Shown piece after piece: positions 4,191 through 31,911 of a stretch of 64,000 nt of DNA. This DNA comes from a virus, in the IMG/VR virus record IMGVR_UViG_3300032401_001514, positions 1 through 64,000 of that record; one strand, written 5' to 3'. The translations under genes were made by a program, and so were the position numbers. The notes below the pieces were generated by a model. That model had not been told where the DNA came from, made no database searches, and saw only the letters and a program-made list of their open reading frames with translations. The stretch's first letter is position 1. Every line of letters starts with the position of its first letter.

Positions 4191-4196
4191 CAGTTT

Positions 4197-4586
4197 ATGA
4201 ATTGGTTTAGCTCTATAGGGATACTAAGATATAGCGAACATTACCTAGTGGTTGATGTTGATCCTGGCATTGTAGAATTAGCTAGGTCGTTAGTTCCAAA
4301 AGCATGGTATCTTAATCGTCAAAAGTATGCTCCGCATATTTCTGTTGTTAGGCACGAAAACCCTGTAGTATTAAAAAATTGGGGAAAACACGAAGGTAGA
4401 GAAGTAGAATTTAAATATTCTACTTATGTTTATAATGATGAGGTTTATTATTGGTTACAGGTTCTTAGTCCAACCTTAAATAATATAAGAATTGAATTTG
4501 GATTAAGCAAATTTAGTGAAAGGTCAAGACCTCCTGATGGTCATGATTGTTTTCACATAACGATTGGAAATACGAAGAAGGTGTAA
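4197..4586 (+). CDS. 2H phosphoesterase-superfamily protein (LigT-like)
   Basis: The start is placed at ATG 4197 because the longer frame runs back into tRNA-Leu. The 129-aa protein has the two H-x-S/T motifs that define the 2H superfamily: HIS at about 47-49 and HIT at about 120-122, each in a hydrophobic strand. These enzymes act on 2',3'-cyclic phosphate or 2',5'-linked nucleotides, and some act on cyclic ADP-ribose phosphates. It is one of several RNA-repair-like genes in the window (RNA ligase, P-loop kinase, CCA enzyme), so end processing of cleaved tRNA is one reasonable role. The substrate is not determined by the sequence. Confidence 0.7.
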   Translation: MNWFSSIGILRYSEHYLVVDVDPGIVELARSLVPKAWYLNRQKYAPHISVVRHENPVVLKNWGKHEGREVEFKYSTYVYNDEVYYWLQVLSPTLNNIRIEFGLSKFSERSRPPDGHDCFHITIGNTKKV

Positions 4587-17283: not shown

Positions 17284-17943
17284 TTAATTGTCCTTTTTTG
17301 TTAGTAAATTGCAGTCGTTTGTAATATAGCGCGCAAGTGGTTGATAAGTTAACATCATATCTAATATCATGTTTTTACTTGGAGGCCATGGTGTTGCCCA
17401 AGCTTTTTTTGTAAAAGCAGAAGATAGTGGCTCTTTTATATCAGTGATTTTTACAACACAATATTTATCAATGTTCAAATATTTTACTATTGTTCGTAGC
17501 GTAGTAACACTTGTTATTAATGGCGATTGATTTTCAATCCATTCATTTTGGATAAACGTGGACAGTCGTAATTTATTATCAATGCCCAAAAACCATATAA
17601 AAATTATATTAAGTCCTGGTAAAATATTATTAAACTGAGGGATGCCAGCTGAACTTTCCGCAAAACATATTAAAGCCCATTTGCTATTTTTTGAAATAAC
17701 ATCAATTGGGGCTTTAAAATGAATATCTTTTATTATTCGTATTCTTTTTTTTGTAGGAGATTCTTTACTAGAAATTACTGTTTTATCATTTTTTATGTGC
17801 AAGTAGTTACCATTGGCATCAGACCATTTATACCAAGAGTCGCCTTCCGGATCCAAATTACACATATCTATTATTTGAATTATTTCTTGGTCTTGTGGCA
17901 AAAAAGCTTTAACATTGACGATAGCAGTTTCGCGATTTATCAT
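17284..17943 (-). CDS. Hypothetical 219-aa protein
   Basis: The protein has an N-terminal domain with DPEGDSWYKWSDANGNYLH and a hydrophobic middle (IIFIWFLGI), then a helical C-terminus. The hydrophobic stretch is short and flanked by charges, more like a buried strand than a membrane helix. No motif is recognised. It lies 5 nt upstream of the IF-1 start, so the two are probably cotranscribed. A TCGAG element lies about 32 nt before its start codon. Confidence 0.7.
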   Translation of the reverse strand: MINRETAIVNVKAFLPQDQEIIQIIDMCNLDPEGDSWYKWSDANGNYLHIKNDKTVISSKESPTKKRIRIIKDIHFKAPIDVISKNSKWALICFAESSAGIPQFNNILPGLNIIFIWFLGIDNKLRLSTFIQNEWIENQSPLITSVTTLRTIVKYLNIDKYCVVKITDIKEPLSSAFTKKAWATPWPPSKNMILDMMLTYQPLARYITNDCNLLTKKDN

Positions 17944-17980: not shown

Positions 17981-18700
17981 TTATTTCCTATCTATTAAAC
18001 AAACTGGAATGTTATTATTATATTTATGTCTTGTTAATTTTTCTATTTGAAAGGCCTTGCATATTAAGGCCTTTTGTATAAAAGTATAAGTGTACCATAG
18101 AGGATGTTTTGTAGGATCTATATCTGCTGTAATTATTCCTTTATTTTTATCCAATTGTTCAAGCCATTCAAGTTCGGCATGAGTAAATTCTGATGGTTCT
18201 GGATCATCAATTTCTATTTTTACCAACTCATTATACATTTGGTAAACTTCAGTATGTGTTAAATCATTAATTGGCAATATGTCAACAGGTTCAAATTTAT
18301 CATAATTTCTAATAAGAATCGAATCGTTTTTACACCTAGTGCCAATAATAAGGGCATCATATTCAATAGAAGCGGAATATATATAAGCGTTCTGTTTAGC
18401 GGCTCGCCGAAGCCCAAGAGCCCCGATAAAATTTAAGTCATCATTTGAGTCTCCAAGCATATCGTGTTCTTTATTAGAAAAAATATGATGTGGTATATTA
18501 AATTTATTGCTGAGACGATAGCTCGATTGAACAGATGATATTGTATGAACTTTCAAAAGTGAACGCAAGCACAAAAAAGCAACTAGGCCACAAGCCATGT
18601 TGTTTGGTGATACATCAACTAATAATGATTTTTTATTGCGTTGATAGGCCTGTTCTTTTATCCAATTTATTATAAATTCGGTTGTTTCATTTATATGCAT
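17981..18700 (-). CDS. NAD synthetase (NadE)-like protein with altered P-loop
   Basis: The 239-aa protein follows the NadE layout. An ATP-pyrophosphatase-like loop lies at about 27-38 (LVDVSPNNMACG), a middle segment reads AYIYSASIEYDALIIGTR, and DILPINDLTHTEVYQMYNEL matches the NadE adenylate-binding region. The PP-loop signature SGGxDS is replaced by SPNNMA, so ATP binding or catalysis may be lost or changed. NadE makes NAD from nicotinate adenine dinucleotide, the last step after the PncB reaction encoded nearby. It could be an active variant, a regulator or a relic. The start overlaps the upstream repeat gene by 10 nt. Confidence 0.68.
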   Translation of the reverse strand: MHINETTEFIINWIKEQAYQRNKKSLLVDVSPNNMACGLVAFLCLRSLLKVHTISSVQSSYRLSNKFNIPHHIFSNKEHDMLGDSNDDLNFIGALGLRRAAKQNAYIYSASIEYDALIIGTRCKNDSILIRNYDKFEPVDILPINDLTHTEVYQMYNELVKIEIDDPEPSEFTHAELEWLEQLDKNKGIITADIDPTKHPLWYTYTFIQKALICKAFQIEKLTRHKYNNNIPVCLIDRK

Positions 18701-19803
18701 AATTTTCTCATACAGGTCTCTATTCCAATACTCGGTCCATGTCCTTTATCTTCTATCTCAAATTTATCATTCAAAAAATATATGTGCCAAGCCTTAATAT
18801 TGTCTTCTCCTACATATAATATTTTTATTCTCTTTCTTCCGTTTTCAAGATAATCAAACTGTACTATACCATTCTCTCCTGAAGTACTGTGACCGTAATA
18901 TCCTGAAGTACTGTGACCGCAATCTCCTGAAATACTGTGACCGAAATTTCCTGAAATGCTGTGACCGTAATATCCTGAAGTACTGCGACCGGAATATCCT
19001 GAAGTACTGTGACCTAAATCTCCTGAAATACTATAACCGCAATCTCCTGAAATACTGTGACCGTACTCTCCTGAAATACTGTGACCGGAATATCCTGAAG
19101 TACTGCGACCGTAATATCCTGAAGTACTGTGACCGCAATCTCCTGAAATACTGTGACCGGACTCTCCTGAAGTACTGTGACCGGAATTTCCTGAAGTACT
19201 GTGACCGTAATCTCCTGAAATGCTGTGACCGTAATATCCTGAAGTACTGCGACCGGAATATCCTGAAGTACTGTGACCTAAATCTCCTGAAATACTGTGA
19301 CCGGAATATCCTGAAGTACTGCGACCGTAATATCCTGAAGTACTGTGACCGTAATCTCTTGAAGTACTGTGACCGGAATATCCTGAAATACTGTGACCGT
19401 ACTCTCCTGAAGTAACCGTAGCAAAAGCACAAGCAGATCCAGGACATAACTTTACAATCATGTCTGTAGCATCTTTCTTAGATCCTACAAATACTACATA
19501 TGCTTTTGGCACTTTTACTTTGCTATCTATTTGTACTACTTCAGATTTAACAACAGCTATAACCATCCATTTTGCTGTATTCTTTTTACTTAAAAGAGAT
19601 CCGTCACCTTCTCCAGATAACAAACCATGCAGTCCGTTACCACATTCAGGCTTAGGGTCCCAGTCAGGAACAGAAACAAGACCAGAAGAAGGCCACTGGA
19701 AATCTCCACGACTCTTCAGATCTTCATCACATGTCCTAAGTAAAAAACATATTTCGGTTGGAGAACATTCTAAAGCAGAAGCAAATTCTTGTATTGCAAT
19801 CAT
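18691..19803 (-). CDS. Octapeptide-repeat protein (predicted beta-solenoid)
   Basis: The 370-aa protein has a non-repetitive N-terminal domain (1-133), 22 tandem octapeptides of the form xxGHSxSG (134-309) and a C-terminal domain of about 60 residues. The regular Gly-His-Ser spacing suggests a stacked beta-solenoid, as in phage proteins with repeated short motifs between two capping domains. No signal peptide is present. It lies between the NadE-like gene and the ADP-ribosylglycohydrolase gene and is probably cotranscribed with both. A possible role as a decoy or scaffold is speculation. Confidence 0.72.
   Translation of the reverse strand: MIAIQEFASALECSPTEICFLLRTCDEDLKSRGDFQWPSSGLVSVPDWDPKPECGNGLHGLLSGEGDGSLLSKKNTAKWMVIAVVKSEVVQIDSKVKVPKAYVVFVGSKKDATDMIVKLCPGSACAFATVTSGEYGHSISGYSGHSTSRDYGHSTSGYYGRSTSGYSGHSISGDLGHSTSGYSGRSTSGYYGHSISGDYGHSTSGNSGHSTSGESGHSISGDCGHSTSGYYGRSTSGYSGHSISGEYGHSISGDCGYSISGDLGHSTSGYSGRSTSGYYGHSISGNFGHSISGDCGHSTSGYYGHSTSGENGIVQFDYLENGRKRIKILYVGEDNIKAWHIYFLNDKFEIEDKGHGPSIGIETCMRKLCI
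18877..19404 (-). repeat. 22 tandem copies of a 24-bp coding repeat
   Basis: The units encode GHSTSG- or GHSISG-type octapeptides. Copies differ by point changes, mainly at the two residues before GHS and at Thr/Ile, and some larger blocks recur (GYSGHSISG, GYYGRSTSG), pointing to repeated duplication. Since 24 is a multiple of three, copy-number change would keep the frame. Confidence 0.95.
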
Positions 19804-19805
19804 TT

Positions 19806-20816
19806 TTATACCACTATTTCAAATAATTTATCAGCAAGATCAATCAATCCTTTACTATTCTCTACTTCTTTTCTGAGACGGATCGGGAATGCTGTAAGAC
19901 CCCATTTGGCGCCGACTAAAGCGCTATACATACTAGCATTTGTATCTGTGTCCCCACCACATTTTATAAGTTCACACATTGTATTTACAACATCACGTTT
20001 TTTACGTGTATTAAAGAAAACTGCCACGGCGGTAATCCAAGAGCGATCTGCACGACTATCAACTCCAATATTAAATGCGATGGAACTGATATCTCGCATA
20101 CGAACGGCTTGTTTTAGTTTATCTGAAAATCTGCTATTTCCAAAAAAATCAAGTTCAACTCGGTTCATATTTTCCAATAATTTTTGTTTAGAACGATTAT
20201 TGTTTATCAAATCAGCAATAAGCACACTTTGTAAAACGCCGGCTGTGATACCAAGTTCATGATGTGTAATTTTACCAACAGAAATGATACTGTTGATACA
20301 GTGTTTTATTTCGCTTTTAGATCTTTTGCCAGCGTTAACTTCCTCTATAATTTGGCTTAAATAGAGGCCGAGCGGAGCTGCACGCATGGCAACTCCATTA
20401 CCAACCCCCAAAGATGTGTCAGCTGCCCTAAACCATGGCACACCTTTTGTTAGCCGCTCTACAGCAGCGATAGTAGAACGACTCCATCCACGAAGCACTT
20501 CTCCGCTTTCAAAAATTTCTTTTAATCGCAAAGCCTGATCGAATGGATCAATACAATTTTTGATAGTAATTGATTTAATCAAAGGAATCATTAATTGAGT
20601 ATCATCGGTCCAGCTACCACGCTTTTGAATGATATCACCTCTTGTACGGAAATGATCAATAAAATCTCCGGTGATTTTTGCAGCGGGATTAGCTTCAATT
20701 TCTGCTTTGCTCATACTTTCAGTAGGAGCGCCTAAGGCATCACCAATAGCCGTACCAATAATTGCGCCACGAAACCTAGATTTGCGCTGAGAATCAACTG
20801 TTATTAATGTTATCAT
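19806..20816 (-). CDS. ADP-ribosylglycohydrolase (DraG/ARH family)
   Basis: The start is placed at the ATG at 20816 (MITLITVDSQRK), after the upstream pncB stop; a longer frame would overlap pncB. The 336-aa protein has GTAIGDALGAPTE (about 21-33), WTDDTQLM (about 69-76) and near the C-terminus CGGDTDTNASMYSALVGA. These supply the Asp/Thr ligands of the two-magnesium site, so an active enzyme that removes ADP-ribose from proteins or nucleic acids is expected. It stands beside NAD-synthesis genes and 10 kb from a PARP. A writer and eraser pair in one phage is notable. Confidence 0.92.
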   Translation of the reverse strand: MITLITVDSQRKSRFRGAIIGTAIGDALGAPTESMSKAEIEANPAAKITGDFIDHFRTRGDIIQKRGSWTDDTQLMIPLIKSITIKNCIDPFDQALRLKEIFESGEVLRGWSRSTIAAVERLTKGVPWFRAADTSLGVGNGVAMRAAPLGLYLSQIIEEVNAGKRSKSEIKHCINSIISVGKITHHELGITAGVLQSVLIADLINNNRSKQKLLENMNRVELDFFGNSRFSDKLKQAVRMRDISSIAFNIGVDSRADRSWITAVAVFFNTRKKRDVVNTMCELIKCGGDTDTNASMYSALVGAKWGLTAFPIRLRKEVENSKGLIDLADKLFEIVV

Positions 20817-20823
20817 TTTTATT

Positions 20824-22332
20824 TTACTTTGAAAGCGTTGAATGGTATGCGTCTGTTCCGCCACTTGTTGAGATGATCATATTAGTTTTAGCATGATGAA
20901 GATCTATGTCTATACCACAATGGTATTCTTGGGGGTTGTTAAATTGTTTTACATCCTCAGACAACTTAGATAACTGTGTTTGTGCATAATCTCTAATTTC
21001 ATTTAGAGATGGTTGCATACGAACAAGTTTGCCATTTCTGATTGAAGGCTCTAGAATTTTATAATTATTGATTTTTTTCATATTATATTTTTGTTGCCTA
21101 GTTGCATCGTTATGCTGAACTGCCGTAACTTCTTCTTTATTTGAATCTAAAAGAAGCTCATCATAAATCATATCACCACAAAATTTTCCATCTTTTTCAA
21201 AACGTACAGCATTAAGTATACCAGGGTTACTAGTTTTTATTGTTTGATCAGAAAGCTTAATTTTTGGAATCCAAACGCCATTTTTTTGTATGGCTCCCAT
21301 TTTATAAACACCGCCTAGAGCTGGTTGGCTATTAGATGTTATCATTTTGGTACCAACAATCCAAGAAGCAATGGTCGCCCCCTGCAACTTAAGTGATGAA
21401 ATTAACATTTCATCCAAATCGTTACTACCGCCAATTATTACATCATGAAGTCCGGCATCATCCAGCATTTGCCGTCCACGTTTCGATAAGAAATTTAGAT
21501 CGCCAGAATCTAAACGAATGCCAATTGGCTTGTATCCATTATTTTTTAATTTAGCACATGCAGTAATTGCGTTTTTTATTCCACTAATTGTTCCATATGT
21601 ATCTACCAGAAACACACAATTATTTGGCAGAGCTTTTGCATATGTTTCGAAAGCTTCCAGTTCAGAGTCAAAAAACATTACGAACGCATGTTGCATTGTT
21701 CCGCCGGCTTTTATGCCTAACGTCTTTCCTGCCCATGTATTGGACGTTCCTTTGATTCCGCCAATGTAACAGGCTCTTGTAGCAGAAAGAGCCCCATCAA
21801 GCCCCTGAGCCCGTCTAAGCCCTCCATCAAGTACTGGGTTGCCACCTGCCGCCCGCACCATTCTTGACGCCAATGTAGCAAATAGCGTTTGAGAATTTAA
21901 TGTGCATAGAGCGAAAGATTCTATAAGCAATGCGTCTGCTACAGTGCCAATGGTTCTTATCATTGGTTCATGCGGAAAAACTACTGTGCCTTCTGGAACA
22001 GCATCAACATCGCATGTAAAACGAAAGTCACTCAGGTATCTAAAGAAACCATCATCTTGAAAAATTCTTTTGCCATCATTTCCTTCAATACTGGCTAAAT
22101 AATCGATATCCGTGGAATCCATCTTGAAATCAGTAATCCAGTCTTCAAGATATTCTTTGCCAGCACAAATAGCGTAGCCTCCATTAAAAGGAGAGGACCT
22201 ATGAAACATATGGAAGCAACTTTTTGTTTCGTGTAAGTTTGCTTTCCAAAATGCATAAAGCGCGGTGAATTGGTAAAAATCAGCAACCAACGCTAAAGAT
22301 TGGTTACCATATATTTTTTTCAGGATGGCCAT
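20824..22332 (-). CDS. pncB: Nicotinate phosphoribosyltransferase
   Basis: The 502-aa protein matches the nicotinate/nicotinamide phosphoribosyltransferase family: N-terminal LVADFYQFTALYAFWKANLH, FHRSSPFNGGYAI, then FLVDTYGTISGIKNAI, IRLDSGDL and a GGSNDLDE phosphate-binding loop. The overall pattern is closer to PncB than to NAMPT. The reaction joins nicotinate and PRPP to give nicotinate mononucleotide, entering the Preiss-Handler route to NAD. The downstream NadE-like gene could serve the last step; no adenylyltransferase (NadD) was found in the window. The operon continues into the glycohydrolase gene. Confidence 0.88.
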   Translation of the reverse strand: MAILKKIYGNQSLALVADFYQFTALYAFWKANLHETKSCFHMFHRSSPFNGGYAICAGKEYLEDWITDFKMDSTDIDYLASIEGNDGKRIFQDDGFFRYLSDFRFTCDVDAVPEGTVVFPHEPMIRTIGTVADALLIESFALCTLNSQTLFATLASRMVRAAGGNPVLDGGLRRAQGLDGALSATRACYIGGIKGTSNTWAGKTLGIKAGGTMQHAFVMFFDSELEAFETYAKALPNNCVFLVDTYGTISGIKNAITACAKLKNNGYKPIGIRLDSGDLNFLSKRGRQMLDDAGLHDVIIGGSNDLDEMLISSLKLQGATIASWIVGTKMITSNSQPALGGVYKMGAIQKNGVWIPKIKLSDQTIKTSNPGILNAVRFEKDGKFCGDMIYDELLLDSNKEEVTAVQHNDATRQQKYNMKKINNYKILEPSIRNGKLVRMQPSLNEIRDYAQTQLSKLSEDVKQFNNPQEYHCGIDIDLHHAKTNMIISTSGGTDAYHSTLSK

Positions 22333-22505
22333 ACGATCATCATAACCATTACTGAAAAAATGTCAACTGTCGTTTGTAAGATTTGGAGCCCAAAGAGAGC
22401 CTTATACTCCCATCAACCAACGATTTGCTGGCCGCTTTGTAAATTAAGCTATTCGGGCATAAAGATTATATATCACAATATTTTTTTGTTTGTTCAACAA
22501 AATTT

Positions 22506-22898
22506 CTAGTGTAAGAAATGTCCGAACAAAGATTGTGCTAAGGTGGTGGTAAGACTTAAAATACCGGCAATAATGGCTACTCTAAGTTGCCATTTATTAG
22601 CCTCAGCTGTTTTTTGCATTTTTTTATTTTCATCAATCCATTCTTTTACGGATTCAATATTTTTTTCTGCCGATAATAATCTTCCTATGAGAGAACGATC
22701 ACTGCTTTCATCTCTTAGTATTTTGGATAAAGATTTGACATCATCACGCAAAGCGGATACCTCTGTGGTAACGCCTTTCATAGCAACGGCGCCAGAGTGA
22801 ACATCTGTTTGCAATTCATGAAGTAACTTGGAAGTTGATTCTAGGCCTTTAGCAAATTGTTCTGCTAAAATACGGCTTGCATCATTATTATCAACCAT
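22506..22898 (-). CDS. Coiled-coil protein with C-terminal membrane helix
   Basis: The 130-aa protein is helical with heptad-like regions (about 20-90) and ends in a hydrophobic segment (VAIIAGILSLTTTLAQSLFG, about 107-126), a tail-anchor arrangement. Its start overlaps the 3' end of the upstream membrane-protein gene by 8 nt, so the two are coupled. Together they could form a membrane complex. The layout is also compatible with phage spanin or accessory lysis proteins, but no family is recognised. Confidence 0.68.
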   Translation of the reverse strand: MVDNNDASRILAEQFAKGLESTSKLLHELQTDVHSGAVAMKGVTTEVSALRDDVKSLSKILRDESSDRSLIGRLLSAEKNIESVKEWIDENKKMQKTAEANKWQLRVAIIAGILSLTTTLAQSLFGHFLH

Positions 22899-23424
22899 TT
22901 ATATACTCCGATACTTCTATTGTTTCTTCATGAGTTAATTCTTTCAAACTATGTATTACGTCATCTAGTTCTTTGAAAGCGATAAGCTTGTCATCATTGC
23001 GTAAATTTTGAAGTACAAGAATTTGTTTTTCTAGTCGTATAGATCTGTTTTCCGAAGCCGCTGTTCTAGCTAATACTTTTAGCTCTAAATTAAGGTTAAG
23101 ATCCATTAATTCTTTTTCGACTTCTTTTCTTTGTATTGATAATATCGCCGTTAACAGTATAATTACATATGCAAATATTCTATTAAATAATTCATTAATT
23201 TGCATAGAAAAGCCACCATTATAGTAAATTCCAAATGAAATTAATACGGAGGCTATTAATGAAGCCCAAACAGTAAGCATAGTTTCTGTAGACAAAAGAG
23301 ATATTAAAATTAAAATAATATAAAAAGCTGCTATTATTCCATGCGTTGGAAACATTAAATCCAACGAAAAAATAACGGCAGCAACTAGCATGCCATAAAT
23401 TGCCAGTTGACTATTTTTGTGCAT
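22891..23424 (-). CDS. Multi-pass membrane protein with cytoplasmic coiled coil
   Basis: The 177-aa protein has four to five hydrophobic segments within residues 8-100, followed by a long charged helix (about 100-170). The layout resembles the N-terminal sensor part of some histidine kinases, but no kinase domain follows. It is coupled to the downstream tail-anchored coiled-coil gene. A role in sensing or reshaping the host membrane is possible. Function unknown. Confidence 0.68.
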   Translation of the reverse strand: MHKNSQLAIYGMLVAAVIFSLDLMFPTHGIIAAFYIILILISLLSTETMLTVWASLIASVLISFGIYYNGGFSMQINELFNRIFAYVIILLTAILSIQRKEVEKELMDLNLNLELKVLARTAASENRSIRLEKQILVLQNLRNDDKLIAFKELDDVIHSLKELTHEETIEVSEYING

Positions 23425-23457
23425 ACTTGTAAGCCAAAATATGCAAAGTAAATAAAA

Positions 23458-23685
23458 CTAATAATTTTGGCTATAAACTTTTCTTTTATTTCTAGCTTTG
23501 CGTCGTTTATCCTTCATTAAAATACGTAAAGTTGTTTTTATTGGTTCTCCCGCTTCGTCTTTGCCTATTTCAACAAGATCATCAAGCTCAGTTGGGAGAC
23601 CCTGCTGTTTTCTCTGAAGCGCCCATTGCTCTTTTAATTGTGAGAATACTTTTACTTTCTTTTGTATTTTTCTTATCTGGCTCAT
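23458..23685 (-). CDS. Hypothetical 75-aa basic protein
   Basis: The protein is rich in Lys and Arg at both ends (KIQKKVKVF; KDKRRKARNKRK), which suggests nucleic-acid or ribosome contact. Its ATG has AAGGA at good distance. It overlaps the 3' end of the P-loop kinase gene by 98 nt in another frame, a long overlap even for a phage. The good ribosome binding site argues that it is real. No family is recognised. Confidence 0.6.
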   Translation of the reverse strand: MSQIRKIQKKVKVFSQLKEQWALQRKQQGLPTELDDLVEIGKDEAGEPIKTTLRILMKDKRRKARNKRKVYSQNY

Positions 23686-24178
23686 ATTTTTTATTCCTTA
23701 GTTCATGAAAATCATGAGTAAATTCATCAATCATGACATTGTTTACTTTTTTTGGCGTTTCAACAAAGTTGTCTATCATTCTTTGTATTGCTTCTATCGG
23801 CACACCGTGAACATTAACTTTGTGGCATTCTTTAGCGGAACACCCAACAATTGAATGAACTGCAACATTGTAGCCAGAATCAGTGGCAAATTTTATATAC
23901 CATTGAAACTCTCTAAGTTTTATATTAGTGTTATCTACTATAACCAAAGCTTCGCCACTAGCTAGCGCTTCTTTGAAGTTTTCGCGGCATTTATCATGTG
24001 CCGCTCCTAGTAATTTTGGATTGAATTTGTAATTTATTGGATTGTGAGGTTTATCGAAATAAAAGAAATGATCAGCGCTGCAAATAACCGCAGGCATACC
24101 ATACTCCGCCTCTAAATATAGAGTTAAAGTTGTTTTCCCCGATCCCGGTACGCCACGCATGATAATTACTTGTTTCAT
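23588..24178 (-). CDS. P-loop nucleotide/polynucleotide kinase-like protein
   Basis: The start is taken as the ATG at 24178 (MKQVIIMRGVPGSGKTT); an ATG at 24199 is possible. Walker A is GVPGSGKT at about residues 9-16. Then come ICSADHFF (Walker B-like Asp), a helical lid and VIVDNTNIK. This is the AAA_33/polynucleotide-kinase-like arrangement shared with T4 Pnk and eukaryotic N4BP2. It could phosphorylate 5' RNA ends and so work with the RNA ligase and 2H protein, but the substrate is not shown. No phosphatase domain is fused. Confidence 0.78.
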   Translation of the reverse strand: MKQVIIMRGVPGSGKTTLTLYLEAEYGMPAVICSADHFFYFDKPHNPINYKFNPKLLGAAHDKCRENFKEALASGEALVIVDNTNIKLREFQWYIKFATDSGYNVAVHSIVGCSAKECHKVNVHGVPIEAIQRMIDNFVETPKKVNNVMIDEFTHDFHELRNKKYEPDKKNTKESKSILTIKRAMGASEKTAGSPN

Positions 24179-24182
24179 TGTA

Positions 24183-24560
24183 TTACCCGAAAATTTCATT
24201 GTTTTCAATTCTCTCTTTTAAATCTTCTATTATAAAAGAGGCTGCTTTCCAGTCATGTTCGTTAGGAGTGTCTTTATTTACAGAATCAAAAACCCAGTCC
24301 CACATACTGGTATCTAAAAAGAAATCAGAATATGTAGGATGAAACGCTTCTGGGTAAATATTGACCTGATAATCTTTTAATGCCATTAGCTCAGATATAA
24401 ATTTGGAAAATTCCTTATTTTTATAAGCATCTATTATATTAGTAATATAATCGGCTATTTTAGTTCTATCTTCCATTGAAGACTCTCTAAAATCGGACCC
24501 TTCCATTGCGTGATCTGTTAATAGTTCTGCGGCCTGTTTAAATAAACTCTCTATGCTCAT
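24183..24560 (-). CDS. Hypothetical 125-aa acidic protein
   Basis: The protein is helical and acidic, with aromatic clusters (YPEAFHPTYSDFFLDTSMWDW). It starts 5 nt after the exonuclease stop and ends 4 nt before the kinase start, so it belongs to the same operon. No motif, signal or membrane segment is visible. Function unknown. Confidence 0.68.
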   Translation of the reverse strand: MSIESLFKQAAELLTDHAMEGSDFRESSMEDRTKIADYITNIIDAYKNKEFSKFISELMALKDYQVNIYPEAFHPTYSDFFLDTSMWDWVFDSVNKDTPNEHDWKAASFIIEDLKERIENNEIFG

Positions 24561-24565
24561 GTTTG

Positions 24566-25153
24566 TTATTCCAAAATATGAGGGCTTCTTTTAATATGTG
24601 GAAGATGGTCCACGCCATCGTCCATTAACTTCTTCCAGAGTATATAGGCGTTCTGAGTATCGACAAGTGCGTTATGTTCTCCGAACTTAGCTTTTGCGTT
24701 CACTATTTCCAATGAAGCTCTTAGATTAAGTTTCGGATTGGCTATTCCATGTTTTATAGTATAGCTTCTGGTAAATTCCTTAGTGCATAGCCACAAATGA
24801 GCTGGAAACGTTTTATTAACCGATTGCCACAAGGCGTGAACAAACCTTTTATCGAATGAAGCGTTGTGCGCAATCATACAGCGATGCTCTGGCGTTTGTC
24901 CATCCTCTTCTATAAATTTTTCGCAAAACTCAACTACTGCCAGTCTACTTTCACCTTTAAATAAATCGGCTTTGGTTCTGTTTGTAATTTGAAGAGCTTG
25001 TGCAGAGGCTCGTTCTGGATGTTCGGCTTTTATGTATTTATCTAGCTGGTGTCTATCAGAACATCTAACTAATGAAATCTGCGTAACTTCATGTTGTTTT
25101 GAATCTAGGCCGGTAGTTTCCGTATCTAGTGCGTAGTAGATTATATTTGACAT
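24566..25153 (-). CDS. DnaQ-like (DEDDh) 3'-5' exonuclease
   Basis: The 195-aa protein has the three exonuclease motifs: Exo I ALDTETTGLD (about 8-17), Exo II AHNASFDKRF (about 95-104) and Exo III HNALVDTQNA (about 160-169), giving the D-E-D-D-H set. Such proteins proofread or trim DNA or RNA. No polymerase is fused. It opens a short operon, with a TCGAG element about 29 nt upstream. A second DnaQ-like exonuclease lies at 34474; the two are only distantly similar. Confidence 0.88.
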   Translation of the reverse strand: MSNIIYYALDTETTGLDSKQHEVTQISLVRCSDRHQLDKYIKAEHPERASAQALQITNRTKADLFKGESRLAVVEFCEKFIEEDGQTPEHRCMIAHNASFDKRFVHALWQSVNKTFPAHLWLCTKEFTRSYTIKHGIANPKLNLRASLEIVNAKAKFGEHNALVDTQNAYILWKKLMDDGVDHLPHIKRSPHILE

Positions 25154-25181
25154 ACATATTTATGTGCAAATCTTTGCTCTG

Positions 25182-25186
25182 CTCGA
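25182..25186 (-). promoter_or_regulatory. TCGAG element upstream of exonuclease gene
   Basis: On the minus strand TCGAGCAGAGC lies just after the stop of the 25189 gene and about 29 nt before the exonuclease start codon. It recurs in the same position in other gene borders. Role unknown. Confidence 0.3.
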
Positions 25187-25188
25187 CC

Positions 25189-25509
25189 TTAAAAATTCTT
25201 GATTAATTTAATCATATTAGTGCCATATTTGTATACCTTAGCACTAATTTTTTTCATTCCATTAACTTTTGTTAATGGCGGATTAAGCATCGCAGATTTA
25301 TCGATTAATTCAACAGCTTCTTCTGGACTTTCAGCCAATACTTTATATTTCAAAGTGCTTTTAGTCCAGGCCTCTACTTCTATAGTATAAAATTGTTTTT
25401 CTGCTTTTTTTATAACTTTAGGTTTTTTGTCTTCCGCAGACTTTTGTCTTTCTGGAAAATTATAAGCATAACGTTTTTTAGCGTCATTTTTATCATCATC
25501 TTTTGCCAT
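25189..25509 (-). CDS. Hypothetical 106-aa protein with charged N-terminus
   Basis: A Lys/Asp-rich disordered N-terminus (about 1-38) precedes a compact domain with FYTIEVEAWTKSTLKYKVLA and PEEAVELIDK. This is a small alpha-beta layout common in phage proteins of unknown role. It is divergent from the CCA-enzyme gene with about 47 nt between starts, so both promoters must sit there or upstream. No family is recognised. Confidence 0.65.
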   Translation of the reverse strand: MAKDDDKNDAKKRYAYNFPERQKSAEDKKPKVIKKAEKQFYTIEVEAWTKSTLKYKVLAESPEEAVELIDKSAMLNPPLTKVNGMKKISAKVYKYGTNMIKLIKNF

Positions 25510-25556
25510 ATTTATGTATATAACATATGATTATACATGTTGCCCACAGGACAAAG

Positions 25557-27206
25557 ATGTTGCGAAGCTTAGCCAGATGTGCCAGAATGGTTGTTTTCAG
25601 AAAGGTTGCGGTAGAGCTTATGCAAATCAACAAGTCGCCAACAGAAAACAGGATATTTGATCTGTTATTAGCTGTTGTTAAAGATAAAGCTCCCGATACT
25701 GTATTAAGAGTTGCCGGAGGCTTTGTGCGTGATCGTTTACTTGGCAAAGAATCTCATGATATAGACATTTCCATAAATAACATGAGTGGTGAGCAATTTG
25801 CCAATCTAGTTAAAAATTATATGGACGAACATGGTATTCATACAAAAGGAGTGTCTGTAGTAAAAGCAAATCCGGACCAAAGCAAACATTTAGCTACCGC
25901 AATGATAAATATATTTGGTCTTTCTATAGATTTTGTTAATCTGAGGAAAGAAACATATTCAGAATCCAGAATTCCAACTATTGAACCAGGAACTCCGGAA
26001 GAAGATGCTAGGCGCAGAGATTTAACTATCAATTCTATATTTTATAATATCAATGATGATAAAATAGAAGATTTTGTTGGTGGTATAGAAGATTTAAAAA
26101 ATGGAATAATTAGAACTCCCATAGATCCTATACAAACATTTATTGATGATCCTTTACGTATTTTACGAACAATTAGATTTGCTTCGAAATTTGGATTTAA
26201 TGTTGCTCCTGAAATATTAGAAGCGGCAAATAATAAAGATGTACAAGATGCTTTCAGATCGAAAGTAAGTGCTGAACGTGTGTGGAAAGAACTTGCCGGT
26301 CAAGCAGAACCTGAAGGATGGAAATCAGGATTTTTGACTGGTCCAAATCCACACGAGGCAGCCAAGCTATTAGGTCAGATGGGCCTAAGAGATATATTAT
26401 TTGGATTAAATGAGGAAGAGCAAAAGCAGCTTGGTTTGTCAAAAGGAATGGTGTCATTTGATACCGAACAACATAATCCTCATCATGATTTAAATGTCTG
26501 GGAACATACTTTAAAAGTATTGGAATTTTTAGTAAAAAAACAGACTACCGAAGAACAAAAAAATAAAGCGGAAGATTATCTTGTAAGAAACATTTCCGCT
26601 CTATTACATGATATTGGCAAATGTGATATTTGCGCTATACAAATGTACTCTACAGATCATCCGGAATATAAAGCGCGTATTGAAAAGCTTAAAGAAAAAT
26701 ACGGACTAACTCATGAGGGAGAGCTTCGTGCTTTTGAAGGCCATGCCGAATCTTCTGCTAAAATGGCAGAATATGTTTTAGACAGAATGAAAGCTCCAAA
26801 AAATATTAGCAAGAGAGTAATACGTCTTGTTAAAGAACATATGCGCCCTCATGGCATGACTAATATATCTGATGCAGGATTACGAAAGTTTATAAAAGAT
26901 CTTGAAGATGACTGGAGACATTCATTAGAATTGGCTATAGCAGATGCTTATGGCAAGAACACACACGAGCCACAAACAAGAGATAAATATGATACTATAA
27001 TTAAACGTATCGATGAAATAATATCTCAAATGGGCGGAACGAAAGTAAAGCCTCCAATTACCGGAAATGACTTAATGCAATTAGGTTTTAAGCCAGGTCC
27101 GACAATGGGTAAGATTTTACACGCTTTACAAGAAAAACTACTTGAGACGCCAAATATGAGCAAAGAAGAAGCCATTGAATTTATTAAAAATTTAAATATT
27201 CAATAA
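25557..27206 (+). CDS. cca: CCA-adding tRNA nucleotidyltransferase with HD domain
   Basis: The start is taken as ATG 25557, which follows AGGACAAAG. The 549-aa protein has VAGGFVRDRLLGKESHDIDI (class II signature with the DxD metal site), RRRDLTINSIFYN and DDPLRILRTIRFASKFGF, then a helical body. A C-terminal HD-type region has ALLHDIGKCD. The enzyme adds or repairs CCA ends. This matters here because nearly all phage tRNA genes lack an encoded CCA. It is the only long plus-strand gene inside a 47-kb minus-strand region, which may mean separate control or later acquisition. Confidence 0.93.
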   Translation: MLRSLARCARMVVFRKVAVELMQINKSPTENRIFDLLLAVVKDKAPDTVLRVAGGFVRDRLLGKESHDIDISINNMSGEQFANLVKNYMDEHGIHTKGVSVVKANPDQSKHLATAMINIFGLSIDFVNLRKETYSESRIPTIEPGTPEEDARRRDLTINSIFYNINDDKIEDFVGGIEDLKNGIIRTPIDPIQTFIDDPLRILRTIRFASKFGFNVAPEILEAANNKDVQDAFRSKVSAERVWKELAGQAEPEGWKSGFLTGPNPHEAAKLLGQMGLRDILFGLNEEEQKQLGLSKGMVSFDTEQHNPHHDLNVWEHTLKVLEFLVKKQTTEEQKNKAEDYLVRNISALLHDIGKCDICAIQMYSTDHPEYKARIEKLKEKYGLTHEGELRAFEGHAESSAKMAEYVLDRMKAPKNISKRVIRLVKEHMRPHGMTNISDAGLRKFIKDLEDDWRHSLELAIADAYGKNTHEPQTRDKYDTIIKRIDEIISQMGGTKVKPPITGNDLMQLGFKPGPTMGKILHALQEKLLETPNMSKEEAIEFIKNLNIQ

Positions 27207-27209
27207 TGA

Positions 27210-28076
27210 TTAAAGGTCATTTTTCCATATGCTTTCACCAGCTATAGTTGATCTGTAAGAAATCCACCCTCGGTGATTTCCTGACCATAAAGATCCTTGC
27301 TTATTATAAACAAGCTTGCTTTTTGGATTTGTAATTGGATATGCCACATGTTCAAAAGGGCTCATATGTCCATTCTTAAGCAGATCTTCACATAGATTGA
27401 TATCTGCTTCAGGATCGCGCTTGCCATCGTGTGTTAAGTAGCTTACGCGACAGCAACGACCTACGGAAATTCTGGCTAGTCCCTCTTGTCCATATTTATT
27501 TATTAAAGCCTCAAGTTCCGCGCCTTCCTCAAATATTAAAGGTAAATGCCATTGTTCGGCAGATAATTTTTGAGGCTGTGATGCGTCATAAGCTTCTGCC
27601 ATCATTGTGGCTATACGCTGAATTTCAGGTTGTGCGTTTTTATTACAGCGCAAACCTCGCCAATTATCCCATTCGGTAGATGTTACGATAACTGTTTGCC
27701 ATAACCAAGGTTCTAAAATTCTATTGGTTATTTGTTTATGCAACCCTAAAGATAAAAGTTTTTCGGCATGAGAAACGGCGCTATCTCTTGCGTACAACCA
27801 TTCAGATTTAGCATTTTCTATTTCATCAATAGATAGTTCTGTTTCAGCCTGCATTCCTTTTTGTTTTTTGCCCCAATGAATAGGAATAAAAGGATCTGTT
27901 TTAACACGCTCAAGCATTTTCTCAACTGGGATAGCTCGGCTACTTGCTGAATTCCTAGAGAATACCCTATGTGTATTAAATTCGGCTAGAACAATTCTTG
28001 GAAAAGTTATTTCAAAGCTAGTTATTCGAATGCCAGTAGGCGATTCAGAGTCTTTTAATATTTTACAAGAATACAT
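27210..28076 (-). CDS. thyX: Flavin-dependent thymidylate synthase ThyX
   Basis: The 288-aa protein carries the ThyX region EFNTHRVFSRNSASSRAIP (the family motif RHRxxSxNxxSxR with the first Arg as Thr), WDNWRGLRCN, RISVGRCCRVSYL and HMSPFEHVA. It makes dTMP from dUMP with FAD and methylene-tetrahydrofolate. It converges with the CCA gene with a 3-nt gap. The first-Arg change occurs in the loop that binds nucleotide and flavin and may affect activity. It pairs functionally with the ribonucleotide reductase at 49181. Confidence 0.9.
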   Translation of the reverse strand: MYSCKILKDSESPTGIRITSFEITFPRIVLAEFNTHRVFSRNSASSRAIPVEKMLERVKTDPFIPIHWGKKQKGMQAETELSIDEIENAKSEWLYARDSAVSHAEKLLSLGLHKQITNRILEPWLWQTVIVTSTEWDNWRGLRCNKNAQPEIQRIATMMAEAYDASQPQKLSAEQWHLPLIFEEGAELEALINKYGQEGLARISVGRCCRVSYLTHDGKRDPEADINLCEDLLKNGHMSPFEHVAYPITNPKSKLVYNKQGSLWSGNHRGWISYRSTIAGESIWKNDL

Positions 28077-28185
28077 TTTTTATCTTCTTAGTTAAATCAA
28101 AAAATTTTTTCCATACTATCAACACAATTAAAATAGGATATAATCTCCACCAGTCGCCAGGTTCATATTTGTTATTTTTTGTCAT
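28063..28185 (-). CDS. Small 40-aa membrane protein
   Basis: A short frame begins at the ATG at 28185 (MTKNNKYEPGDWWRLYPI) with TTTGGAAA upstream. The product has one hydrophobic segment (LYPILIVLIVW) between a polar N-terminus and a basic tail (KKFFDLTKKIKN). It ends 14 nt inside the ThyX gene. A single-span membrane peptide is likely. Function unknown. Confidence 0.5.
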   Translation of the reverse strand: MTKNNKYEPGDWWRLYPILIVLIVWKKFFDLTKKIKNVFL

Positions 28186-28203
28186 TTAATTTCCAAATTT
28201 ATG

Positions 28204-29268
28204 TTATTTTAATAAAACGCTATGAGGTTTACTTTCAATAAGACCGGCATTACTTATTGAAACGAATTCCGGATCTTCCCTAAGCTCCTCTAGAGAAGTA
28301 CAATTTTGATAAGACATGCCACTTTTCAAGCCCTGCATTAATTTCACAATAACATTAGTTACTGGACCTCGATACGGAACAAGTGCAGAAACTCCTTCTA
28401 TATGATCTTGTTTATGAGTTGAGCTTCCTACATACTCTTTATATAACTTGTCATCCAAGCCCTTTATAACATGTCCTGGTGCCTCATCAGTACCAGCTAA
28501 CAGATTGCCAAGCATTACAGCATCAGAAAAACATAATGCTTTGACTATATCTCCCGCTTTATTAATTCCTCCATCAGCTATGATTTTGAACTTTCTATTA
28601 GGTCCATCATTTCTTAAATAACCCTCTGTTCCCCGAAGCAAATCTTGCTGTTGTGGAGCAAGTGAATATTCGTAAACATCGCTCAATGCAGTTAATTGAG
28701 GAACGCCGTTACCGGTTTCAAGTCTGGTAGTACATAAACTTCCAGGGCCAATTCCTACCTTAATTACATTTGCTCCGGCATTATAAAGAGTTCTGGCCCC
28801 AGCTTTTGTTGCGACATTCCCGGATATTAATAAAACTTCAGGATATTTTTTAGCAATGTATTCTGTTGTTTGAGCGCAACCTTTAGAATCGCCATGAGCT
28901 ACATCTACACAAATTACTTTCGGAGGATCCTTTAAATTCATAAAAACATCAATGACTTCTACATTATTGATGCCAAAAGAAACGCCGATTTTATCAAAAG
29001 CATATGACGCTTTATGATAATCATTTATATATTCTTGAATAGAATCATAAAACCTATGTAAAATAGGCAGCCCGCCTAAAGTGCTTAGTTTTTTAGCCAT
29101 GGTTAATTCTGTAACATTTTTCATGTTAGCAGAAACAATAGGTATTTCTAATGTAATTCCTTTACCAAGATCTACAGAAGTATTAACATCTTTTCTGTTT
29201 TTAATCTCACTATATTTTGGAACTAACAAAACATCATCAAATGTATAACCAATTCTGGGGTGCAACAT
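28204..29268 (-). CDS. IMP dehydrogenase / GMP reductase family enzyme
   Basis: The 354-aa (beta-alpha)8 barrel has FDDVLLVPKYSEI at the start, the catalytic loop KVGIGPGSLCTTR with the active-site Cys, and IIADGGINKAGDI plus DAVMLGNLLAG for phosphate binding. CBS domains are absent. The late EGVSALVPYRGPV segment is closer to IMP dehydrogenase than to GMP reductase, so oxidation of IMP to XMP with NAD is favoured, though not certain. It would support guanine nucleotide supply. The leader carries a terminator-like hairpin and, further up, a TCGAG element. Confidence 0.85.
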   Translation of the reverse strand: MLHPRIGYTFDDVLLVPKYSEIKNRKDVNTSVDLGKGITLEIPIVSANMKNVTELTMAKKLSTLGGLPILHRFYDSIQEYINDYHKASYAFDKIGVSFGINNVEVIDVFMNLKDPPKVICVDVAHGDSKGCAQTTEYIAKKYPEVLLISGNVATKAGARTLYNAGANVIKVGIGPGSLCTTRLETGNGVPQLTALSDVYEYSLAPQQQDLLRGTEGYLRNDGPNRKFKIIADGGINKAGDIVKALCFSDAVMLGNLLAGTDEAPGHVIKGLDDKLYKEYVGSSTHKQDHIEGVSALVPYRGPVTNVIVKLMQGLKSGMSYQNCTSLEELREDPEFVSISNAGLIESKPHSVLLK

Positions 29269-29288
29269 ATTTTATCTCCAAATGAAAA

Positions 29289-29323
29289 AAACTATCAACA
29301 ATTAAGTTGATAGTTTTTTTTTG
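29289..29323 (-). terminator. Bidirectional terminator-like hairpin
   Basis: AAACTATCAAC and GTTGATAGTTT form an 11-bp stem with a 6-nt loop, flanked by A and T runs on both sides. It lies between the LAGLIDADG gene and the IMPDH-like gene. It could end the upstream transcript or act as a hairpin in the IMPDH leader. Confidence 0.8.
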
Positions 29324-29325
29324 CG

Positions 29326-29330
29326 CTCGA
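29326..29330 (-). promoter_or_regulatory. TCGAG element upstream of IMPDH-like gene
   Basis: On the minus strand TCGAGCGC lies just past the stop of the LAGLIDADG gene and before the terminator-like hairpin, about 58 nt from the IMPDH start. Role unknown. Confidence 0.3.
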
Positions 29331-29345
29331 CTACAAAAGTATTTA

Positions 29346-30332
29346 TTATTTCCATTTATATGATAAACTTGGTACTGGACAAGAGCCAATTATTTCATAA
29401 AATTGATTTGTTTGAGATTGTGGAACTCTTATTCTCCAACCAGTACCAGAGCTACAAGGCGTTGTTTTTATATCAATATTAAATTTTTTATTTATTTTTT
29501 CACAAAACATTTCTTGATTATCTCTTGTGAAAGATTCTGAACAAATTGTAATTATTATTTGTTTAGTTTTTGATTTTTTTCTTCTATGAAAAGATGTTCC
29601 ATCATCCATAAACATATTTAACAAAAGCTCTGAACTTATTTCTATGTCTTCTGGTATTACTTTTTTATAATTGGATTTTTCAGGATACCATTTGTTATAA
29701 AGTGGTAATAATGTTTTGTGTGTAAGAGATGAAATATGAAAATATTGATATTTTTCGTTTTTAGGATTTATATAGTGTGTTATTCGTGATTCTGGGTTTT
29801 TTAAAAAAATATTATTTGCCACATATAGAATATGATCATAATAAATATTTTTTTTATGAAAATAAGGAATTGATATATTACTTTTATTATTCCATATATC
29901 TAAAGATCCGTCTCCTAATAAAGATCCATTAATAACTGGTAAATTTAAAATAAAATTATCATCTTTTCTATTTATTGTTTGGCCATCACTTTTATTTCTA
30001 ATATTAATATTATGTCTAACCAAAAATTGTCTAGTAGAATTACATGATTTTGCACCAATTAAATTAGCAATTTGTTGGGTTGATAATTTATTATCAATAT
30101 AATTATTTTTCAACCATAATGGATCATTTAATAAAGAATATTTAGATTGTTTTTTCGGCGCTAATAAACAGGCTTCTGATGCAGAACGAATCTTAATATC
30201 AAATTTTTTTAAACAATATCCTACTGCTCTAATACTGCATCCAATAATTTTAGCAATTTCCGTAGTTGATTTTTTCTCTTTTGAATATGCATTATCAAGC
30301 CATATTGGGTCTGCCAATTGCGGGTACTTCAT
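29346..30332 (-). CDS. LAGLIDADG homing endonuclease
   Basis: The 328-aa protein has two N-terminal helix-turn-helix-like repeats (WLDNAYSKEKKSTTEIAKII and WLKNNYIDNKLSTQQIANLI) for DNA contact. The two LAGLIDADG helices follow: INGSLLGDGSL (about 133-143) and LLNMFMDDGTS (about 235-245), each ending in the catalytic acidic residue. It is free-standing, not an intein or in-frame insertion, and lies between the PARP and IMPDH-like genes. Both neighbours look intact. Confidence 0.88.
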   Translation of the reverse strand: MKYPQLADPIWLDNAYSKEKKSTTEIAKIIGCSIRAVGYCLKKFDIKIRSASEACLLAPKKQSKYSLLNDPLWLKNNYIDNKLSTQQIANLIGAKSCNSTRQFLVRHNINIRNKSDGQTINRKDDNFILNLPVINGSLLGDGSLDIWNNKSNISIPYFHKKNIYYDHILYVANNIFLKNPESRITHYINPKNEKYQYFHISSLTHKTLLPLYNKWYPEKSNYKKVIPEDIEISSELLLNMFMDDGTSFHRRKKSKTKQIIITICSESFTRDNQEMFCEKINKKFNIDIKTTPCSSGTGWRIRVPQSQTNQFYEIIGSCPVPSLSYKWK

Positions 30333-30357
30333 ACCACAATTGGCAAATATTGATATA

Positions 30358-31911
30358 TTATCCAGAAATTTCTAATAAATATTTAATATGAGATTGGCAG
30401 TCCTGTGGCTTAAAATCATAAGTAATCATTTCATCATTACGAACTCCAGAATGAGAAGCTTTACCATAAACAGAATGATATCCTTTAGGAGCACCTTTGA
30501 AAAATTGTGGATGTGAAGCTTTATACATGTTTCCAAAAGACACATCTAACAAGAACATAAATCTTGAACTAGGAGCATTTCCGCCAGTCCAGTAACCACC
30601 GTCAGTATAATTTAATGATTTAGTAGAGTTCCAAGCGAAGTATTTGCCATCACCAAACATTGAGCCTGTATGAACTGCCCCAGATGGACGAATCATAAGA
30701 CCACGTTTTGTAATACCTATAACGTTAGCACTTCGCGTGCCATGCCAGCAAAGCCAAGTATTAGCTTCATTGTAAAGCTTGCAAAGCTCTGGGCTTAAAT
30801 CTGGACGTTTCTTGGGCTCCCATTGATGGGCGCCCTTAGTGATATCTCCTGCTTCCTTTGCGAAAGAATGCTTACCGCATTCTTTAGCAATTGCCGATGT
30901 ATTTTCAAGGAAATAACTTTCTTCCTTATCTTTACGTTTTACTCCCCAAATATTCTTTATTCTAATGGCTTTTGGTCCTGAGAAAGAATATCCATGACCC
31001 CTTACAGCAGAATTCGAAAAGTAATCAACTAAGAAGTTGAATATTGGGTCAGAATGCTCTACGAACTTAAAGTCCGCATTGAGCGTAGTATATTGATCAT
31101 CCACTGAGGAATCAGCTTTTAGTACCGCCCCAATGCTCTTAGCATCTAGTAGAGTATCAAGATCATCTTCTTTCTTGATAATCTTATCAAGATCATCTAA
31201 AAGAAGTTCAGTCATTTGGCCACGAGCGCCTTGGCCAAGATTATGCGGAATGAGCCTATAGAATTCATTAGTTAGATCAGTAACTAACGATTCATCTTTC
31301 TTAGGCAGAGCAACGGACATTTTGCCGTTCTGTCCGGCCCCGGCAGAAACAAGAATTTTTCTTGCTTCATTTAGCGCATCTCGTCCTTTATCAATTTGGG
31401 CATTAGTAAGTTGTCCGAGCGGACATTTTAGAGTTTGAATAACGAACTGATTTGTAGCGCCCATAAGGTCGCCAATAAGCCGTTGCGTTTCAGAGTGCAG
31501 CGAGCTTTTCTTTTTGCTAGGATCCAGTAAGCCATCAGCATTTTTCAACTGAACAGCTTTCGTGATCTTCTTAGCTTCTTCGGAACCATGAGCACGCTGG
31601 GCTACGTCAACTTCTCCGTAACCCTTCTTCTTCTTAGACTTGATAAGGGCTTCGAATTCATGTTCGGCCGCGCTGAGGTCAGGGTAGTAGCGCCATTCGT
31701 TTGTTTGGTGCCCGCCAGTCGGCCCCCACATCGTAAAAATCTGAGTCTTGGAACCACTCTTTGGCTTATGAAGCTCGATATGGTAAGACTTGTTCGATGT
31801 TCCTTGGGTATTCGCTTTGCCACCAGTAAGGTCGAAGAAGGCAAGCTCCAGCACCCTCTCTACAGTGTACGAACCTTCCTTTAGAATAGGGGACTTCTGA
31901 ACTTTTTCCAT
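30358..31911 (-). CDS. Poly(ADP-ribose) polymerase with WGR, regulatory and catalytic domains
   Basis: The 517-aa protein has the layout of eukaryotic DNA-dependent PARPs. A WGR-like domain spans about 40-105 (MWGPTGG, EWRYYPDLSAAEHEFEALI). A helical regulatory domain spans about 140-265 (IGDLMGATNQFVIQTLKCPL). The C-terminal catalytic domain has CWHGTRSANVIGITKRGL (His390), FGDGKYFAWNSTKSLNYT (Tyr424) and RNDEMITYDF (Glu494). The H-Y-E triad needed for chain elongation is complete. The Arg of the WGR signature is Pro here. It should use NAD to modify protein or nucleic acid, perhaps on sensing DNA ends. Context: NAD synthesis and ADP-ribosylglycohydrolase genes lie nearby. Confidence 0.95.
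   Translation of the reverse strand: MEKVQKSPILKEGSYTVERVLELAFFDLTGGKANTQGTSNKSYHIELHKPKSGSKTQIFTMWGPTGGHQTNEWRYYPDLSAAEHEFEALIKSKKKKGYGEVDVAQRAHGSEEAKKITKAVQLKNADGLLDPSKKKSSLHSETQRLIGDLMGATNQFVIQTLKCPLGQLTNAQIDKGRDALNEARKILVSAGAGQNGKMSVALPKKDESLVTDLTNEFYRLIPHNLGQGARGQMTELLLDDLDKIIKKEDDLDTLLDAKSIGAVLKADSSVDDQYTTLNADFKFVEHSDPIFNFLVDYFSNSAVRGHGYSFSGPKAIRIKNIWGVKRKDKEESYFLENTSAIAKECGKHSFAKEAGDITKGAHQWEPKKRPDLSPELCKLYNEANTWLCWHGTRSANVIGITKRGLMIRPSGAVHTGSMFGDGKYFAWNSTKSLNYTDGGYWTGGNAPSSRFMFLLDVSFGNMYKASHPQFFKGAPKGYHSVYGKASHSGVRNDEMITYDFKPQDCQSHIKYLLEISG

What the first reader, a model, noticed from the sequence alone, without database searches (positions are those of the whole stretch)
17981..31911. 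Possible phage ADP-ribose cycle: PARP writer, DraG-like eraser and NAD resynthesis genes
Within 14 kb the sequence encodes a WGR-PARP with intact H-Y-E triad, an ADP-ribosylglycohydrolase with intact metal motifs, nicotinate phosphoribosyltransferase and a NadE-like protein. A second ART-like protein (12668), a 2H phosphoesterase (4197) and a SLOG protein (797) add to the theme. Established knowledge: PARP consumes NAD, ARH/DraG removes ADP-ribose, and PncB and NadE are Preiss-Handler steps. Inference: the phage may mark host or phage targets, reverse the mark, and refill NAD that host defences or its own PARP deplete. Seeing writer, eraser and NAD supply in one phage locus is unusual.
Basis: partly seen in the sequence, partly recalled or inferred. 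Interest (0 to 1): 0.85.

Follow-up and report, generated by a model that had tools for sequence, protein, structure and literature searches.

The report
Phage ADP-ribose writer, eraser, NAD gene
A large bacterial virus carries, close together, an enzyme that would attach ADP-ribose using NAD, one that would remove it, and one that helps remake NAD, and similar sets turn up in several other giant viruses, which suggests (but does not prove) that they work as a cycle.

Summary
The genes are real. The window is 64 kb of a 129.6-kb IMG/VR phage record. It encodes a full WGR-PARP (30358-31911, H390/Y424/E494 intact), an ADP-ribosylglycohydrolase (ARH, 19806-20816) and an equivalog-level nicotinate phosphoribosyltransferase (PncB, 20824-22332). 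PncB and ARH are 7 nt apart in an operon-like run. The fourth, 'NadE-like' gene is a degenerate NAD synthetase paralogue without the SGGxDS ATP loop, so it is probably not a synthetase. No NadD/NMNAT was found, so the record lacks a full Preiss-Handler pathway.

Comparison mostly supports the theme. Of 19 ARH-bearing records of at least 200 kb, 11 also carry PARP, against 1 of 11 control phages. Most PARP-ARH pairs lie 3-18 kb apart. The two phages with the closest ARHs share the whole neighbourhood; one has a different PncB family beside ARH. Other lineages have PARP or ARH beside PncB/NAMPT, NadD/NMNAT and NadE. Against it: four close PARP relatives lack ARH and PncB, proximity is only moderately significant by lineage (P about 0.02 and 0.006), and no activity is shown.

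I found no paper describing this linkage. Best reading: a reversible ADP-ribosylation module with NAD support, a new variant of the known viral NAD+-ADPr network.

The parts
30358..31911 (-). WGR-PARP_reg-PARP protein (writer), 517 aa, H390/Y424/E494
   Evidence: Pfam three domains over cut-off; triad invariant in 12 phage PARPs; PARP1/2 best in PDB; syntenic with IMPDH-type gene in related phages
19806..20816 (-). ADP-ribosylglycohydrolase (eraser); listed ORF starts at GTG 20864, ATG at 20816 is the likelier start
   Evidence: PF03747 156 bits; metal motifs and TH conserved; MJ1187, ARH3 and DraG are PDB relatives
20824..22332 (-). Nicotinate phosphoribosyltransferase PncB
   Evidence: NCBIfam equivalogs NF006695 and TIGR01513 over cut-off; PDB 2f7f E=2e-90
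17981..18700 (-). Degenerate paralogue of NH3-dependent NAD synthetase, without SGGxDS loop
   Evidence: homologues just downstream of ARH in L015 and L016, next to the 17284 homologue in G001
18691..19803 (-). DUF7666 protein with GYSGHSTSG-type repeats, between ARH and NadE-like
   Evidence: DUF7666 25.8 bits (cut-off 27); phrog_18079 2e-54
17284..17943 (-). Unknown protein ending the operon-like run; conserved in G001 and G006
   Evidence: no Pfam match; 45% identity in G006 and 33% in G001
28204..29268 (-). IMPDH/GMP-reductase family protein, conserved neighbour of PARP
   Evidence: PF00478 282 bits; near PARP in relatives including RAS14
12668..13696 (-). Possible second ART (weak PARP/KptA-like N-terminus); membership in the module uncertain
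   Evidence: PARP 18.8 bits, below cut-off; homologue 4 kb from PARP in Stenotrophomonas phages RAS14/CM1
4164..4586 (+). 2H phosphoesterase-like protein; homologues near PARP/ARH or PncB in 7 other phages, mostly one clade
   Evidence: PF22547 23.8 bits, below cut-off 27; cluster c11
797..1297 (+). SLOG (YpsA-type) protein; homologues within about 10 kb of PARP in one huge-phage clade
   Evidence: PF06908 43 bits; cluster c39

Best explanation
The locus most likely encodes a reversible ADP-ribosylation system with support for its substrate. The WGR-PARP would be switched on by DNA ends or another nucleic-acid signal through its WGR and helical domains, and would attach ADP-ribose to phage or host targets, consuming NAD (inferred from family). 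The ARH would remove ADP-ribose from protein or nucleic acid, to limit or reset the mark (inferred). PncB would raise NAD by feeding nicotinate into the host's NadD and NadE, with nicotinamide from PARP first deamidated by a host nicotinamidase (inferred). The NadE-like protein is probably a non-catalytic paralogue, perhaps a binding or regulatory partner (speculative). Shown here: domains, catalytic residues, operon-like layout, and recurrent co-occurrence of PARP, ARH and NAD genes in other huge phages.
For: Intact triad and metal motifs. PncB-ARH-DUF7666-NadE-like-17284 run with gaps of 7, 2, -10 and 37 nt. The two closest ARHs lie in phages that share the whole neighbourhood with PARP. G006 has an E. 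coli-type PncB (TIGR01514) 1 kb before ARH, a different NAPRT family from the window's. 11 of 19 ARH records of at least 200 kb carry PARP vs 1 of 11 distinct control phages (0 of 11 above 50 bits; Fisher P=0.018 and 0.0016). 6 of 16 PARP records of at least 200 kb carry ARH, while PMC9503650 gives about 5% of jumbo phages. PARP-ARH gaps: P=1.9e-4 over 21 records, 0.019 with one value per lineage. NAPRT/NAMPT near PARP or ARH: P=0.006 by lineage. A clade of eight phages has NAMPT-ARH-PARP in conserved order, with an NMNAT-type gene beside NAMPT in six; G049 and G050 have PARP with PncB-NadE-NadD. In Planctomycetes, PARP often neighbours a Macro gene, and in 2 of 13 loci also ARH.
Against: G001-G004, with PARPs 55-58% identical, have no detectable ARH or PncB, so PARP can do without them. 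In G007, G027, G040 and G068 PARP and ARH lie 60-172 kb apart. In the window alone the PARP-ARH distance is not improbable (P=0.17). PncB does not use nicotinamide, and NadD and an active NadE were not found in the record.
Confidence: 0.45

Rival explanations
1. Counter-defence island without a cycle: each gene answers a different host weapon. ARH strips ADP-ribose put on by host ART toxins, PncB repays NAD lost to host NADases, and PARP acts on its own host target. They are near each other because such genes gather in the same variable regions.
For: PARP occurs without ARH in G001-G004 and most smaller PARP records; ARH without PARP over cut-off in 22 of 37 records; NAD genes also occur in ARH-only phages such as phage G. 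PMC9503650 describes phage NAD synthesis as an answer to host NADases.
Against: Does not by itself predict that PARP is enriched among ARH phages and close to ARH in several lineages, nor two different NAPRT families beside the same ARH.
Confidence: 0.33
2. PARP-ARH works as a toxin-antidote or superinfection-exclusion pair: PARP harms the cell or a rival phage and ARH protects the resident phage, like DraT-DraG or the ART-ARG pair reported in Aeromonas phages. NAD genes are incidental.
For: ART-ARG pair in Aeromonas phages (PMC9503650); ARH beside an Alt-type ART in Cronobacter phage S13; planctomycete PARPs sit beside proteins that match type XIII retron models, with Macro and sometimes ARH.
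Against: PARP and ARH are not adjacent in the window (9.5 kb, separate gene runs); PARP exists in relatives without ARH.
Confidence: 0.15
3. Ordinary auxiliary metabolism: PncB, the IMPDH-type and ThyX proteins raise nucleotide and cofactor pools; PARP and ARH are unrelated cargo, and the NadE-like gene is a decaying remnant.
For: IMPDH-type, ThyX and ribonucleotide reductase genes are nearby; the NadE-like gene has lost its ATP loop.
Against: NadE-like genes are kept in four phages next to or near ARH or the 17284 homologue, which is not expected of a dying remnant.
Confidence: 0.07

Closest known systems
Viral NAD+-ADPr network (Iyer et al. 2022, PMC9503650)
   Same: ARTs incl. PARPs, ARG/ARH, SLOG, 2H and NAD-salvage genes are known in large phages; ARG is held to act on macromolecular ADP-ribose
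   Different: In the sections read, the paper gives NadV/NadM/NadR as phage NAD synthesis and ARG in about 5% of jumbo phages; linkage of WGR-PARP with ARH and with PncB/NadD/NadE is not described there
Phage NAD+ reconstitution pathways NARP1/NARP2
   Same: Phage genes that restore NAD
   Different: Window has PncB only; no NMNAT or NAMPT-type gene was found by PF01467 and PF04095. The G011 clade has NAMPT+NMNAT-type genes, so NARP2-like, next to ARH and PARP
DraT-DraG and ART-ARG toxin-antitoxin pairs
   Same: Writer plus ARH-fold eraser
   Different: Here the writer is a PARP1-like WGR protein, in a separate gene run about 9.5 kb away
PARP1/2 plus ARH3/PARG cycle of eukaryotes
   Same: WGR-HD-ART writer with an ARH-fold eraser; ARH3 is among the PDB relatives
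   Different: No zinc-finger or BRCT match; targets unknown; nearest cellular PARPs found here are mostly planctomycete
Planctomycete PARP-Macro(-ARH) loci beside type XIII retron-like genes
   Same: PARP with erasers in one neighbourhood
   Different: Cellular, with RT/HEAT/SWIM genes that the phage locus lacks

Membership tests
WGR-PARP (PARP1-like ART) | WGR, regulatory helical and ART domains with H-Y-E | tested here: met
WGR-PARP (PARP1-like ART) | NAD-dependent (poly)ADP-ribosylation activated by DNA ends | not testable with these tools
   needs assay
ADP-ribosylglycohydrolase (ARH/DraG) | PF03747 family with dinuclear metal motifs TDDT and GGDTDT | tested here: met
ADP-ribosylglycohydrolase (ARH/DraG) | Specific DraG or Tri1 equivalog | tested here: not met
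   61 vs 337 bits and 50 vs 490 bits; substrate class therefore open
Nicotinate phosphoribosyltransferase | Equivalog-level score | tested here: met
   NF006695, TIGR01513 over cut-off
NAD synthetase (NadE) | Family score over cut-off | tested here: not met
   13.7 vs 21 bits; 16 vs 255
NAD synthetase (NadE) | ATP-PPase loop SGGxDS | tested here: not met
   SPNNMA in the window protein
Complete Preiss-Handler pathway | PncB + NadD + NadE encoded | tested here: not met
   No CTP_transf_like match in 129.6 kb, NadE degenerate; record may be incomplete
NARP2 (NAMPT + NMNAT) | NAMPT and NMNAT genes | tested here: not met
   for the window record, which may be incomplete
ART-ARG toxin-antitoxin pair | Adjacent two-gene unit, toxicity relieved by ARG | tested here: inconclusive
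   Not adjacent (9.5 kb); toxicity not testable here

The most novel reading that the evidence does not exclude
Several groups of huge phages have independently assembled a self-supplied ADP-ribosylation cycle (DNA-sensing PARP writer, ARH eraser, and a phage NAD pathway by either PncB-NadD-NadE or NAMPT-NMNAT), in which the NAD genes serve the phage's own PARP and not only repair of host NADase damage.
Probability: 0.3. Interest if true: 0.8.

Novelty: new variant of a known kind. Interest (0 to 1): 0.6.

Why it matters
As far as I could find, the role of phage PARPs is unknown. If they come with their own eraser and NAD supply, phage poly- or mono-ADP-ribosylation is a regulated process that can be tested, and some phage NAD-synthesis genes now read as anti-NADase counter-defence may instead feed the phage's own ADP-ribosyltransferases. 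It also gives a list of genomes and gene pairs with which to test this.

Tried and rejected
Single-protein scans with the NadE-like, PncB and second ART found no relatives in viral contigs; the NadE-like homologues were found only by looking beside ARH. Structure predictions of the NadE-like (pLDDT 52) and second ART (pLDDT 37) were too poor to compare, so no fold search was made. A control scan with the ribonucleotide reductase found one short contig, so a small mixed control of named large phages was used. I suspected a phage retron RT beside PARP in G046 and G010: only about 80 N-terminal residues are shared, not the RT domain; dropped. Promoter-like sites in the region are no more than in shuffles (67 vs 62.8), so the TTGACA-16-TATGAT before PncB is not used. 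The minus-strand 'ARH' of G010 in my tree is a miscalled antisense frame with a very long branch; the true match there is on the other strand.

Full report
What is there. The window is the first 64 kb of a 129,628-base IMG/VR virus record. Ribonucleotide reductase, DnaB helicase, ThyX, CCA-transferase, EF-Ts and 13 tRNA genes fit a large phage. Its closest ARH relatives lie in records of 435 and 459 kb, so this record is probably a fragment (inference). The NadE-like protein is a real but degenerate homologue of NH3-dependent NAD synthetase: below both curated cut-offs, best profile match the solved synthetase 3fiu, SGGxDS loop lost. The second ART and the 2H protein are below cut-off.

Layout. 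PncB, ARH, DUF7666 protein, NadE-like and an unknown protein form a minus-strand run with gaps of 7 (from the likely ARH ATG at 20816), 2, -10 and 37 nt. PARP is 9.5 kb upstream on the same strand, between a homing endonuclease gene and a conserved block, near an IMPDH/GMP-reductase-type gene.

Relatives by synteny. PARP with the IMPDH-type gene and flanking genes is conserved in G001-G004 (PARP 55-58% identity), in G005 and G006, and loosely in Stenotrophomonas phage RAS14, where a homologue of the second ART lies 4 kb from PARP. ARH is in G005 and G006 but was not found in G001-G004. In G005 and G006 a NadE-like homologue follows ARH; in G001 a NadE-like gene lies next to the 17284 homologue, without ARH. 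G006 has PncB one kilobase before ARH, but of the E. coli type (TIGR01514, 394 bits), whereas the window's is TIGR01513-type. Two different NAPRT families beside the same ARH point to selection for the function there (inference). G005 has its NAPRT and a NadE elsewhere.

Wider survey. ARH and PARP alignments were scanned against IMG/VR. Of 37 ARH records of at least 60 kb, 15 have PARP over cut-off; at 200 kb or more it is 11 of 19 (G026 and G039 are near-copies). Of 16 PARP records at 200 kb or more, 6 have ARH. Control: of 12 large phage records, two of which have the same length and are counted as one, one has a PARP match over cut-off, at 28 bits; several of these were chosen by DnaB similarity. 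PMC9503650 reports ARG in about 5% of jumbo phages. PARP-ARH gaps are 3-18 kb in 17 of 21 records with both and 60-172 kb in four; combined P 1.9e-4, by lineage 0.019. Lineages were assigned by eye from synteny. The ARH tree puts the PARP-near ARHs in several groups, not one.

NAD genes. Of 68 ARH or PARP records, 13 have PF17767 and 30 have PF04095 (NAPRT/NAMPT), 15 a NAD synthetase over cut-off, and 33 a CTP_transf_like protein, a family that is not NAD-specific. One clade of eight phages keeps NAMPT-ARH-PARP in order, with NMNAT-type genes beside NAMPT in six and NadE there in two; G049 and G050 have PARP with PncB-NadE-NadD; G040 has NadE, PncB, NMNAT-type genes and ARH within 9 kb. By lineage, NAPRT/NAMPT genes lie closer to PARP or ARH than random (P=0.006; 7 of 19 lineages below 0.1). 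These tests treat gene placement as uniform, which phage genomes are not, so they overstate the evidence.

Cellular parallel. The nearest bacterial PARPs found are nearly all planctomycete. Many neighbour genes that match type XIII retron models (HEAT, SWIM, RT), a Macro gene, and in two of 13 loci an ARH. This is independent support that PARP and erasers travel together, and hints at a defence role there.

Judgement. That PARP and ARH are partners is somewhat more likely than not; that NAD genes serve them is plausible but unproven. PARP makes nicotinamide, whereas PncB needs nicotinate, so the window phage would rely on host enzymes for three of four steps (general biochemistry). Literature searches found no description of this linkage; a Xanthomonas phage with pncB, nadM, nadD and nadE is reported without mention of PARP (PMC13384950). 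The library holds only open-licence papers, so this is not proof of novelty.

Noticed in passing
L304:2609-12051; also L306, L309, L311, L313, L315, L316: Planctomycete loci combine type XIII retron-like genes (HEAT-ARM, SWIM, RT) with a WGR-PARP, often a Macro protein and in two cases ARH; no PADLOC model matches the PARP, Macro or ARH.
   Followed up: partly
L271:12721-13569 and L244:14603-15391: Phage proteins near PARP share about 80 N-terminal residues with the planctomycete retron-RT protein but have no RT match.
   Followed up: partly
window:57732-59135(-): FtsZ/tubulin-like protein (FtsZ model 59 bits, below cut-off; PhuZ weak).
   Followed up: no
window:4564-5223(+): Translation elongation factor Ts encoded by the phage (TIGR00116 138 bits, over cut-off).
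   Followed up: no
window:18691-19803(-): DUF7666 protein with many imperfect GYSGHSTSG-type repeats between ARH and the NadE-like gene.
   Followed up: no
L022:1928-4957: Cronobacter phage S13 has ARH divergently adjacent to an Alt-type ADP-ribosyltransferase, another writer-eraser pair.
   Followed up: no
L291:14683-15264 (G060:C1:34683-35264): Macro-domain gene about 1.2 kb from a phage PARP (eraser of another fold).
   Followed up: no
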